A stretch of 64,000 nucleotides of DNA. Origin: an uncultured Clostridia bacterium. Its GTDB lineage: Bacteria; Bacillota; Clostridia; Oscillospirales; Ruminococcaceae. The notes beneath the pieces are model-generated. The model was not told the origin of the DNA. It made no database searches and worked only from the letters and a program-made list of their open reading frames with translations. Position numbers and translations under genes: made by a program. Of this stretch, positions 31,909 to 64,000 are shown in pieces (the stretch's first letter is position 1; every line of letters starts with the position of its first letter). The stretch spans positions 62,001 through 126,000 of the forward strand of contig CANQRG010000002.1 in NCBI GenBank assembly GCA_947626165.1. The letters run 5' to 3'.

Positions 31909-32180
31909 CAAAAAACGCTTCACTCAAAAGCATAAGCTTTAAGAGACGAAGCGAAAACCGTTCGTGTTACCACTCTTATTCGGCAATGGTTTTATGTATA
32001 TCCATTACCCTCGTAAGCATCAAACAATGCTTTACTCTATAACGGGAGTTCCCGAACAAGCTTACTGAAAATTTCAGCCGTCAGCTCAGAGGTGATAAAA
32101 TACTGGTCAAGTCTTACTGACTTGCATCGACCGTCAGCTTTCTAAAAAGACTAAAACCGATTCGTCCTCGTCATAGCTTT
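31909..32180 (-). promoter_or_regulatory. T-box riboswitch (probably isoleucine-specific) upstream of ilvB
   Basis: On the minus strand a stem-I region with AGAAAGCTGACGG and CACCTCTGAGCTGACGGCTG is followed by the T-box core AAGAGTGGTAACACG (31963-31977). A terminator comes next (31909-31954; CGCTTC...GAAGCG then TTTTTT), competing with an antiterminator. The triplet ATC at 32094-32096, just before ACCTCTGAG, sits where specifier codons lie, giving isoleucine. Uncharged tRNA-Ile should therefore switch on ilvB-cimA. Confidence 0.9.
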
Positions 32181-32193
32181 TATACTAATTTTC

Positions 32194-61400: not shown

Positions 61401-61409
61401 AAATTCTAA

Positions 61410-61621
61410 TATATCCGCCTTGCCGTCGCACAGTGAATAAAACCCGCACTCATGCAGGTGGGTAACGGCCTGACAGCCTCACGCTCCCTTCGTCCGGCAA
61501 AAGCCGGGAGGTCTGCAATCCTCAGTCAGAGCTTAGTTCCCTTATTCTTTGTGTTGGATTATAAAAACTGTGCTTGTTCGCACAAGGCAGAAAGTTTTGT
61601 AAGTCACTTATGTTTCTTACT
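61410..61621 (-). ncRNA. ssrS: Putative 6S RNA
   Basis: No reading frame, but a promoter at 61628-61656 and a terminator at 61365-61400. On the minus strand TCTGCCTTG pairs with CAAGGCGGA to close a core of about 180 nt. GCACAGT pairs with ACTGTGC inside it. A large unpaired region follows (TTTATAATCCAACACAAAG opposite CATGAGTGCGGGTTTTATT), then an apical stem (CTGAC/GTCAG, CTCC/GGAG, CCGGC/GCCGG). A long helix with a central bubble and apical stem is the architecture of 6S RNA, which holds sigma-A RNA polymerase. The assignment is by structure, not by a covariance search. Confidence 0.6.
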
Positions 61622-61697: not shown

Positions 61698-62075
61698 TTA
61701 GTCATCTAAATCTGTTAAGTCTACCTCTCCGTTATCAAGATCAACTCTGTCGCTTCCTTCAATTTCAATAGCGTCATCGTCGTCATCTTCAAACAACTCA
61801 GCAAAGCGATCCATAAACAAGTCTCCAAGCTTGTCGAAAAGTTCGTCGTCGTCAACAGAAACAAGAACCTCCTCGTCTCCCTCATATGTTGATTTTAAAA
61901 TAACTACTTCGCCGTCGTCGGCAAGAATAGCTTCAGCGTCCTCTAAATAGGGTGTAAGAGCGTAATATGTTTCACCTTCATATTCAAGAGAATCCAAAAG
62001 CTCAAACATTTGCTCCTGACCTTCCTCATCTACAAGAGTATACAAATCAGGCTGCATATCCATTTCTTCGTTCAT
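61698..62075 (-). CDS. DUF1292 acidic protein
   Basis: 125 residues, strongly acidic. YTLVDEEGQEQMFELLDSLE and GETYYALTPYLED match DUF1292 (YrzB-like). The C-terminal half is mostly Asp and Glu (FEDDDDDAIEIEGSD). AGGAGG lies upstream of the ATG. In other Firmicutes it accompanies YrrK/Hpf-type genes; here it stands alone. Function unknown. Confidence 0.85.
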   Translation of the reverse strand: MNEEMDMQPDLYTLVDEEGQEQMFELLDSLEYEGETYYALTPYLEDAEAILADDGEVVILKSTYEGDEEVLVSVDDDELFDKLGDLFMDRFAELFEDDDDDAIEIEGSDRVDLDNGEVDLTDLDD

Positions 62076-62263: not shown

Positions 62264-62292
62264 TTGACAACAGCTAAGAGATGTGTTATATT
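62264..62292 (+). promoter_or_regulatory. Promoter of the 62.3-63.0 kb transcript
   Basis: TTGACA (62264-62269), 17 bases, TATATT (62287-62292); TATAAT also lies at 62292-62297. The start would be near 62300. Confidence 0.8.
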
Positions 62293-62298
62293 ATAATT

Positions 62299-63022
62299 GA
62301 AGAAAGGAAAAAGATTAAAATTAACAAAAGTTTATTGAGTTTTCCTAACTTCAAAATTCTAATTAAGGAGAAAGGTCCGATGAACGGTTAAGATTAAATC
62401 CTAAAACAATTATTTGAAAAGGAGATCAGTCCGATGTGCTAATGTAGTGTATTGAGAAATACTAAAGCAAATCAAATTTTTGAATAGGAGAATAGTCCGA
62501 TGAACAGTTAAGACTGAGTAGCTTTGAGGTGTTATACATCAAAGAGTTACTGTTAAAGCCGAGATTGGAATTTAAGGAAAGGGCGTGATAGGAATGTTAA
62601 AAAGAAGACTTAAAGCCTATCAAGACCGATTGATCAAAATTTGAAAAGAAAGAGGCGAGTCCAATGGCAACAGAAGATGCATCAATGTTAGTTAGCTTGA
62701 AGGTAGGCTCGGCTGTTATATAAATGAAATCTAAGTTCAGAATCTGAATTAACTGAAAAAGATTTAAACTAACGAAGCTATAACAAAAGCCGCAGACATT
62801 TAGGTATACGTTGATACAGAAAGTAAGATTACAAATAAAGTAATAACATTCAAAATTGGTTTGGAGCTTAACGGATGCAGTGTTAAGACTAAGTGATTTA
62901 AGTCTGTGAAGTATATCGGAAGAGTGCAGCCGATTACTAAATCAGAATTAGATGTGATTTAGAATACAAATTAAATATAATTAACGAAATTAAAATCCCT
63001 CGGCTAAGCCGGGGGATTTTTT
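62299..63022 (+). ncRNA. Candidate large structured non-coding RNA
   Basis: About 720 bases between a good promoter and a strong terminator, with no open frame longer than about 20 codons in the transcribed sense. It contains many hairpins: AGTGTATT-GAGA-AATACT (62446-62464), CTTTGA...TCAAAG (62522-62544), GATAGG...CCTATC (62587-62621), TTCAG/CTGAA (62736-62748), CTTAAC/GTTAAG (62868-62887), AGACT/AGTCT (62886-62904) and CTAAATC/GATTTAG (62938-62962). A 7-bp long-range match joins AGCCGAG (62557) and CTCGGCT (62708). Four modules of purine-rich AGGAGA or AGAGG followed by GTCCGATG/GTCCAATG recur at 62366, 62420, 62486 and 62651. Size and structure recall the large RNAs ROOL, GOLLD and OLE; I cannot say which, if any. 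Confidence 0.6.
62994..63022 (+). terminator. Terminator of the candidate large RNA
   Basis: ATCCCTCGGCT pairs with AGCCGGGGGAT around a single A, followed by TTTTTT. The stretch 63023-63208 beyond it shows nothing further. Confidence 0.9.
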
Positions 63023-63262: not shown

Positions 63263-64000
63263 TTAATAACCGTAAATAGTTTTTCTAAGCAATGCTGAAT
63301 TCTTTTCAAAATCAACAACCATTATTGAAGAACCGCCTGCGCCTGTTCCATATTCCCAATACCTCTTATCTGACGTACTATCTTCATCTCCGAAAGGTAT
63401 TCTCAACTCAATGCGTTCATAACCGAGAATAAACGGCGCCCTAAGAGACAGGAAGTAAAGCTGGTTCTTAGTCATATTGGTGGTAATTTGCGGAAAAACA
63501 TTTTCAAGCATTTTATTTATATCGAAAATACCGGCGCTTTTGATTTTGTCAATAACCATATTAAGAACCTTCCTTTGCCGGTCCGTTCTGCCAAAGTCGG
63601 TACCTGTAGTTCCATCAATATGCCTTATCCTTGCATATGCAAGAGCTTGATTTCCATTCATATGGATTTTTCCGCCCTTTTTAAGATAATCAGTACCTCT
63701 TTCATTTTTAAGATACTTATTCTGCTCGCCTAAAGGATCAGTCATAGCCTGAGCTTCAGCGTCTGAGATTTCTATATCCAGACCTCCTAGCGCGTCGATA
63801 ATATCAATAAACGAGAAGAAATCTATCTGTATATAGTGGTCTATCTGAATGTTGAAGTTTTGCTCAATGGTGTCCATAACAAGCTCAGGACCGCCGTTGT
63901 TAAAGGCGGCATTTATTTTATTTTCACCAAAGCCGGGAATTTCAACATACATATCTCTCATAAATGAGGTCTGTACAAGCTGTTTGCTGTCTTTGTTAAT
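63263..64000 (-). CDS. LytR-CpsA-Psr family protein (5' end beyond the window)
   Basis: The frame is open through the window edge: NKDSKQLVQTSFMRDMYVEI, so the internal ATG at 63961 is not the true start. Core residues are visible: the conserved Arg in SFMRDMYVEIPG, KINAAFNNGGPEL, the Asp/Gly-rich DALGGLDIEIS and YARIRHIDGTTGTDFGRTDR. The enzyme attaches teichoic-acid-like polymers or capsule to peptidoglycan from lipid carriers, outside the membrane. The missing N-terminus should carry the membrane helix. About 246 residues are visible. Confidence 0.92.
   Translation of the reverse strand: MNKDSKQLVQTSFMRDMYVEIPGFGENKINAAFNNGGPELVMDTIEQNFNIQIDHYIQIDFFSFIDIIDALGGLDIEISDAEAQAMTDPLGEQNKYLKNERGTDYLKKGGKIHMNGNQALAYARIRHIDGTTGTDFGRTDRQRKVLNMVIDKIKSAGIFDINKMLENVFPQITTNMTKNQLYFLSLRAPFILGYERIELRIPFGDEDSTSDKRYWEYGTGAGGSSIMVVDFEKNSALLRKTIYGY

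What the first reader, a model, noticed from the sequence alone, without database searches (positions are those of the whole stretch)
62264..63022. A promoter-to-terminator unit of about 730 nt with no protein but many hairpins: candidate large structured RNA
Seen: perfect TTGACA with TATATT at 17-base spacing, a strong terminator, no long sense frame, and at least seven local stems plus a 7-bp long-range complement (AGCCGAG 62557 / CTCGGCT 62708). Repeated purine-rich modules AGGAGA..GTCCGATG also occur. Known: ROOL (about 580 nt on average), GOLLD and OLE are large bacterial RNAs of unclear function, ROOL being known from gut and rumen Firmicutes. Inference: this is a ROOL-like RNA or a new class. 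It is not flanked by phage structural genes here.
Basis: partly seen in the sequence, partly recalled or inferred. Interest (0 to 1): 0.85.

Follow-up and report, generated by a model that had tools for sequence, protein, structure and literature searches.

The report
Conserved RNA carrying tiny-gene array
Between two ordinary genes of a gut Clostridia bacterium lies what looks like a free-standing RNA studded with ribosome start sites that mostly lead to a stop codon only one or two codons later, a layout seen in many related bacteria, so it may be an RNA built to load ribosomes rather than to make a protein.

Summary
The predicted transcription unit (promoter, about 725 nt, intrinsic terminator) is at the same place in the own genome and in 13 of 13 congeners with a readable locus. 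It matches no Rfam family, ROOL, GOLLD, OLE and raiA included. The window holds AUG-AAC-GGU-stop, AUG-UGC-stop, AUG-AAC-AGU-stop, a 16-aa ORF, a 19-aa ORF and AUG-CAG-UGU-stop. In regions divergent from DUF1292 in 80 family genomes the module occurs 98 times forward, 3 reverse. The third codon is a stop in 40 of 98 modules against 5.8% of 2471 other ATGs (p=4e-22); all three stop codons are used. Five Ruminococcus-type units carry eight or nine micro-ORFs in conserved order, AUG-UAA among them in three. The 3' half has covarying helices within one clade, two overlapping the 19-aa ORF. Best reading: a structured RNA with a minigene array, coated by ribosomes that start and stop at once, whose fold or stability reports or buffers translation initiation. 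The anatomy is well supported; transcription, translation and function are inferred. Seven paper searches found no description.

The parts
62264..62292 (+). promoter TTGACA-N17-TATATT with extended -10 TG
   Evidence: 11 of 12; a promoter of the same layout was found in 14 of 14 units
62366..62391 (+). module 1: AGGAGA..GGUCCG + AUG AAC GGU UAA (MNG*)
   Evidence: ORF of 2-3 aa at this place in 9 of 9 clade-A units
62420..62442 (+). module 2: AGGAGA..AGUCCG + AUG UGC UAA (MC*)
   Evidence: ORF of 2-3 aa in 9 of 9 clade-A units; stop UAA or UGA (sequences); in G014 the bases before AUG are ACCG, not TCCG
62486..62511 (+). module 3: AGGAGA..AGUCCG + AUG AAC AGU UAA (MNS*)
   Evidence: 3 aa (MNS* or MNR*) in 9 of 9 clade-A units
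62594..62644 (+). ORF1, 16 aa MLKRRLKAYQDRLIKI*; hairpin 62581-62592/62616-62627 holds the AUG in its loop
   Evidence: peptide with a K[AST]Y core in 14 of 14 units; the three distinct alignment gaps inside it are 3, 3 and 6; hairpin paired in 100% of clade-A cells but nearly invariant
62650..62723 (+). module 4: AAGAGGCGAGUCCA + ORF2, 19 aa MATEDASMLVSLKVGSAVI*
   Evidence: peptide of 11-23 aa in 14 of 14 units, Glu at residue 4 in 13 of 14
62680..62816 (+). long-range helices 62680-62687/62809-62816 and 62695-62708/62792-62805, whose 5' arms lie in ORF2, enclosing hairpin 62727-62740/62753-62765
   Evidence: second helix: 5 of 12 pairs with changes on both sides; first: 1 of 8; inner hairpin nearly invariant
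62867..62887 (+). hairpin CUUAACG..UGUUAAG with AUG CAG UGU UAA (MQC*, ORF 62875-62886), AUG in the loop
   Evidence: all cells paired, up to 8 sequences; the short ORF is listed in 5 of 9 clade-A units
62889..62962 (+). 3' arm with inner hairpin 62915-62919/62930-62934
   Evidence: helices 8-10: 4 pairs with changes on both sides
62987..63022 (+). intrinsic terminator
   Evidence: hairpins of several different sequences followed by T-rich DNA end the 14 units

Best explanation
The unit is a free-standing, partly structured RNA with a tandem array of strong ribosome-binding sites, most leading to a minigene (AUG, one or two codons, stop), plus two short peptide ORFs. Ribosomes initiate at each site and terminate or drop off at once, so the transcript is held in a ribosome-coated state with little peptide output. 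Occupancy at ORF1, ORF2 and the hairpin minigene competes with the helices that enclose them, so stability and fold follow how well the cell can initiate translation. The RNA thus acts as a sensor or buffer of free ribosomes and initiator complexes. Shown: transcription-unit anatomy by sequence, conserved start-stop modules, covarying helices in one clade. Inferred: that it is transcribed and translated, that ribosome occupancy sets fold or stability, and any effect on the cell.
For:: own genome and 13 of 13 congeners with a readable locus carry the unit; 55 modules in 14 units, 41 with ORFs of 2-3 aa, 14 being ORF2; 98 forward and 3 reverse modules in 80 family loci; third-codon stop in 40 of 98 against 5.8% of 2471 other ATGs (p=4e-22; modules of one array are related, so p is nominal); stops TAG 19, TAA 17, TGA 4, and 4 direct AUG-UAA; offsets 7 and 8 show no excess; of 49 third-codon triplets starting with T, 40 are stops; with an SD pattern that does not demand TCC, 32 of 62 sites with TCC have the third-codon stop against 6 of 64 without; pairing to the anti-SD averages -9.3 kcal/mol against -5.3 for shuffled modules and -4.3 for other ATGs (the pattern itself asks for purine-G, so this is partly built in); 48 of 80 loci have at least 1 and 28 at least 2 forward modules, reverse 3 and 0; five Ruminococcus-type units keep MA*, MA*, MAM* in order, 53-60 nt apart, the MAM stop being UGA in one and UAA in four; covariation in the 3' half. 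PMC8708949 (passages): minigenes act in cis, and bound ribosomes are proposed to protect the RNA.
Against: No expression, ribosome-profiling or genetic data. 32 of 80 family loci have no module by this pattern; the strict pattern hits only 27 of 394 genomes of the order (34 hits against 9 control hits), and misses the own genome. The 3' structured domain is shown only in clade A (9 genomes, one of them lacking most of its 3' part); the inner hairpin read by eye in clade B pairs only after a register shift, and RNAalifold over all 14 gives only -3.9 kcal/mol in the ORF1-ORF2 core. ORF1 variable columns in clade A are not concentrated at third positions (7, 5, 6), so peptide selection rests on frame-keeping gaps and cross-clade similarity. 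Offsets 9 and 10 also show a smaller excess of stops (10% and 11% against 4-5%), and 10 is out of frame. Nothing shows that the modules act together.
Confidence: 0.45

Rival explanations
1. The peptides are the product: an mRNA for two conserved short peptides (ORF1 with a K[AST]Y core, ORF2 with an acidic start), with minigenes as spacing or protection elements.
For: ORF1 and ORF2 are kept in 14 of 14 genus units; acidic residues at positions 2 and 5 of module-led ORFs of 10-40 aa are enriched (47% and 47% of 34 against 7% and 9% of 985).
Against: Many modules encode only M*, MK*, MA* or MY*, too short for sequence-specific products; in the 34 family peptides listed the sequences differ widely after the first few residues; no Pfam match for the two peptides tested.
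Confidence: 0.2
2. Trans-acting minigene load: the array depletes specific tRNAs or free ribosomes through peptidyl-tRNA drop-off, as a growth brake or toxin-like element.
For: Two-codon minigenes can be toxic this way (PMC8708949 passages); Lys AAA is the commonest second codon (15 of 40).
Against: Consensus-like promoter that suggests steady expression (inference); second codons vary (K, A, Y, R, V, others); 19 of 40 stops are UAG, which that paper describes as less toxic than UAA; its own two-codon minigene was not toxic when induced.
Confidence: 0.15
3. The module GGUGAGUCCRAUGNNNUAR is an RNA- or protein-binding motif and is not translated; the resemblance to start-stop ORFs is incidental.
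For: The bases before the AUG are more conserved than an SD needs (with SD alone demanded, 62 of 126 sites have TCC one base before ATG); some copies lack AUG (GUGAGUCCRCC in L025-L028); UAR dominates (36 of 40 stops).
Against: All three stop codons used, AUG-UAA and AUG-NNN-NNN-stop variants besides AUG-NNN-stop, gaps of 3 and 6 in ORF1.
Confidence: 0.12
4. A decayed protein gene or operon.
For: An AT-rich run near 62780-62962 reads like interrupted coding sequence (judged by eye).
Against: Start-stop modules recur across many genera; the 120-nt module pair is duplicated in two congeners; promoter and terminator in 14 of 14; longest stop-free sense stretch 30-72 codons in the 14 units.
Confidence: 0.03
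5. A ROOL-, GOLLD- or OLE-type large noncoding RNA.
For: Size, hairpins, gut Clostridia host.
Against: No Rfam match to these families; dominated by translation-start modules.
Confidence: 0.02

Closest known systems
Two-codon minigenes in leaders (axe-txe mg1/mg2, ler leader; PMC8708949, passages seen)
   Same: SD, AUG, one codon, stop; ribosome binding proposed to protect RNA in cis
   Different: There one or two minigenes precede a gene; here arrays sit in a unit with its own terminator and no gene downstream on that strand
Phage lambda bar minigenes (recalled)
   Same: natural AUG-codon-stop units
   Different: recalled as isolated, in phage DNA and toxic through tRNA depletion; here tandem, chromosomal and found across related genera
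ROOL / GOLLD / OLE / raiA (ModT) RNAs (abstract starts of PMC12286853 and PMC11706538 seen in the listing)
   Same: large structured bacterial RNA
   Different: no Rfam match; micro-ORF arrays (that those families lack them is recalled, not tested)

Membership tests
ROOL, GOLLD, OLE, raiA (Rfam) | match to the family covariance model at gathering score | tested here: not met
   window; six relatives: only 6S RNA found
two-codon minigene | SD + AUG + one or two codons + stop, more often than chance | tested here: met
two-codon minigene | translated in the cell | not testable with these tools
   no ribosome profiling available
cis-regulatory leader (riboswitch, T-box, leader peptide) | lies upstream of and co-directional with a gene it controls | tested here: not met
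   terminator at 62987-63022; the next gene (LytR_cpsA_psr, 63263-63961) is on the opposite strand
small noncoding RNA without translation | no conserved ORFs | tested here: not met
   (conserved by sequence; translation itself untested)
structured RNA | compensatory base changes | tested here: met
   for 9 clade-A genomes; almost none over all 14 in the core

The most novel reading that the evidence does not exclude
A new class of bacterial RNA, seen in at least two or three families of one order, made of tandem start-stop minigenes that load and release ribosomes, so that the RNA senses or buffers the cell's translation-initiation capacity through its ribosome-dependent fold.
Probability: 0.4. 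Interest if true: 0.9.

Novelty: categorically new. Interest (0 to 1): 0.8.

Why it matters
Two-codon genes are mostly known (recalled, and PMC8708949) as phage oddities, laboratory constructs or single leader elements. Here they are repeated, positioned and kept across many genera in a unit with no main product. If translated, the RNA would give a natural system for watching initiation, immediate termination and drop-off, and a case of an RNA organised around them. It also shows how a unit listed as 'no protein' can be dense in translation signals.

Tried and rejected
Rfam at gathering and at E<=10: nothing relevant in the unit, only 6S beside it in relatives. Pairing of the whole module with the 16S tail beyond the SD: UGAG is replaced in the own genus, so only ordinary SD pairing is claimed. 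GGA..UCC mini-hairpin: in the logo the third pair is mostly U opposite U, so it is not claimed, although RNAalifold draws it in clade A. A general promoter pattern used as locator was far too common (208 of 394 genomes). Phage origin: no blastn match; six viral contigs hold one strict hit each, with no further start-stop module within the flank held (two have little flank on one side). Across the phylum the strict pattern is at chance: 8 hits in 8 of 249 genomes, one of the same order, against 6 control hits. TCC appears invariant only because the search pattern demanded it. Antisense gene: the 114-codon stop-free antisense stretch of the own unit is not matched in congeners. Paper searches gave no description of this RNA; most subscription journals are not held, and apart from passages of PMC8708949 only listings were seen.

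Full report
WHAT THE WINDOW SHOWS. At 62264-62292 stands a near-consensus promoter with extended -10; at 62987-63022 an intrinsic terminator. Between them no ORF reaches 60 aa. The unit lies between a DUF1292 gene (61698-62075, minus; PF06949) and a LytR_cpsA_psr gene (63263-63961, minus; PF03816), so no gene follows on its strand in the rest of the window. Rfam finds nothing in it; a 6S RNA lies beyond DUF1292 at 61408-61596, minus. Folding beats shuffles mainly through the terminator (z -5.6 with, -2.4 without).

THE MODULES ARE START SITES. The repeats read AGGAGA-N-GUCCGAUG. Three have a stop within three codons after the AUG: MNG* at 62380, MC* at 62434, MNS* at 62500. A fourth copy, AAGAGGCGAGUCCAAUG, starts a 19-aa ORF at 62664. 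A 16-aa ORF starts at 62594 in the loop of a hairpin, and MQC* at 62875 in the loop of another. In the whole own genome the pattern RRGNNNNNRGTCCRATG occurs 4 times, all here, with 0 control hits.

CONGENERS. blastn at E<=0.001 found matches in 10 of 14 congeners, but starting from the DUF1292 gene the unit was found in 13 of 13 congeners that have it; in the fourteenth, 84% complete, DUF1292 was not found. The 14 units, own included, have a promoter and a terminator. Nine (clade A) have three minigenes, then ORF1, then ORF2; in two of these the minigene pair is duplicated. Five (clade B) have ORF1, ORF2 and two or three MK* minigenes, with AAG or AAA for Lys (sequences). Over the 14 units 41 of 55 modules have ORFs of 2-3 aa and 14 are ORF2. 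ORF1 peptides share a K[AST]Y core in 14 of 14; ORF2 has Glu at residue 4 in 13 of 14. The three distinct alignment gaps inside ORF1 are 3, 3 and 6. Of seven distinct gaps inside the span of the own ORF2, three are multiples of 3; the other four (1, 1, 2, 4) lie at its 3' end or at the stop codon of the row concerned, except that the 2-base gap falls in clade-B ORFs that run further. ORF1 variable columns in clade A are spread evenly over codon positions (7, 5, 6), which does not by itself indicate peptide selection.

THE FAMILY. DUF1292 was found in 112 of 118 family genomes. The best place of the 80 best-scoring genomes was fetched with its divergent side. With a pattern that says nothing about the ORF, there are 98 forward and 3 reverse modules; 48 of 80 loci have at least one and 28 at least two, against 3 and 0 on the reverse strand. 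The third codon is a stop in 40 of 98, against 5.8% of 2471 other ATGs in the same regions (p=4e-22, nominal since modules of one array are related). Offsets 7 and 8 show no excess; 9 and 10 show a smaller one. Stops are TAG 19, TAA 17, TGA 4, plus 4 AUG-UAA; second codons are mostly Lys, Ala and Tyr (30 of 40). Without demanding TCC, an SD pattern gives 62 of 126 sites with TCC; 32 of these have the third-codon stop, against 6 of 64 without TCC.

BEYOND. A strict pattern hits 27 of 394 genomes of the order (34 hits against 9 control hits). Arrays are seen in two loci of another family (L173, L174) and a promoter-linked MY* in four loci of a third (L179, L180, L181, L184); the remaining single hits may be chance. 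Some family units are not beside DUF1292 (G024: different contig; G177: about 100 kb away). In 249 genomes across the phylum the strict pattern is at chance (8 hits against 6).

STRUCTURE. In clade A (9 genomes) RNAalifold gives 102 pairs, 17 with at least one double change. For 79 chosen pairs 94.1% of cells pair; 14 pairs have changes on both sides against a shuffled mean of 6.2, and 0 of 500 shuffles reach that; sliding the partners gives 2-7; the number of further pair types is reached by 7 of 500 shuffles. Four of the 14 are in the terminator. The pairs were taken from the prediction on the same alignment, leaving out 23 pairs mostly of the 5' half, so the test leans towards them. The two long-range helices have their 5' arms in ORF2, so translating ORF2 should open them; that is inference. 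Over all 14 genomes the ORF1-ORF2 core has almost no common structure (-3.9 kcal/mol).

INTERPRETATION. Three stop codons, start-stop variants of different length and frame-keeping gaps in ORF1 point to translation; the early stops point away from peptide products for most modules. I therefore favour an RNA that recruits ribosomes repeatedly, with its fold or stability following occupancy. Published work on minigenes supports single steps: cis action, proposed protection by bound ribosomes, and toxicity by peptidyl-tRNA release for some (PMC8708949, passages). What the cell gains is not shown.

Noticed in passing
window 61408-61596, minus: 6S RNA at Rfam gathering score; 6S also lies near DUF1292 in 5 of 6 relatives searched, so 6S - DUF1292 - unit looks like a kept gene order.
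   Followed up: partly
window 31939-32183, minus: T-box leader at Rfam gathering score.
   Followed up: no
L025-L028, unit: Copies GUGAGUCCRCC without AUG; a GUG start would give MSPP.. peptides.
   Followed up: no
window 62706-62713 and the ORF2-like ORFs of L025, L035: GGCUCGGC recurs inside these ORFs in two different reading frames (own against L025 and L035; read by eye), which suggests an RNA-level signal.
   Followed up: partly
L033, L034: Modules in family genomes away from their DUF1292 gene (G177 about 100 kb, G024 another contig).
   Followed up: no
L174 (another family of the order): Compact unit of about 500 nt read by eye: promoter, MKNETPPAHFIK*, MK*, MK*, a 9-aa ORF, MYNLKS*, terminator.
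   Followed up: partly
window 62600-62941, minus: Stop-free antisense stretch of 114 codons; the longest antisense stretch in 13 congener units is 39-91 codons.
   Followed up: yes
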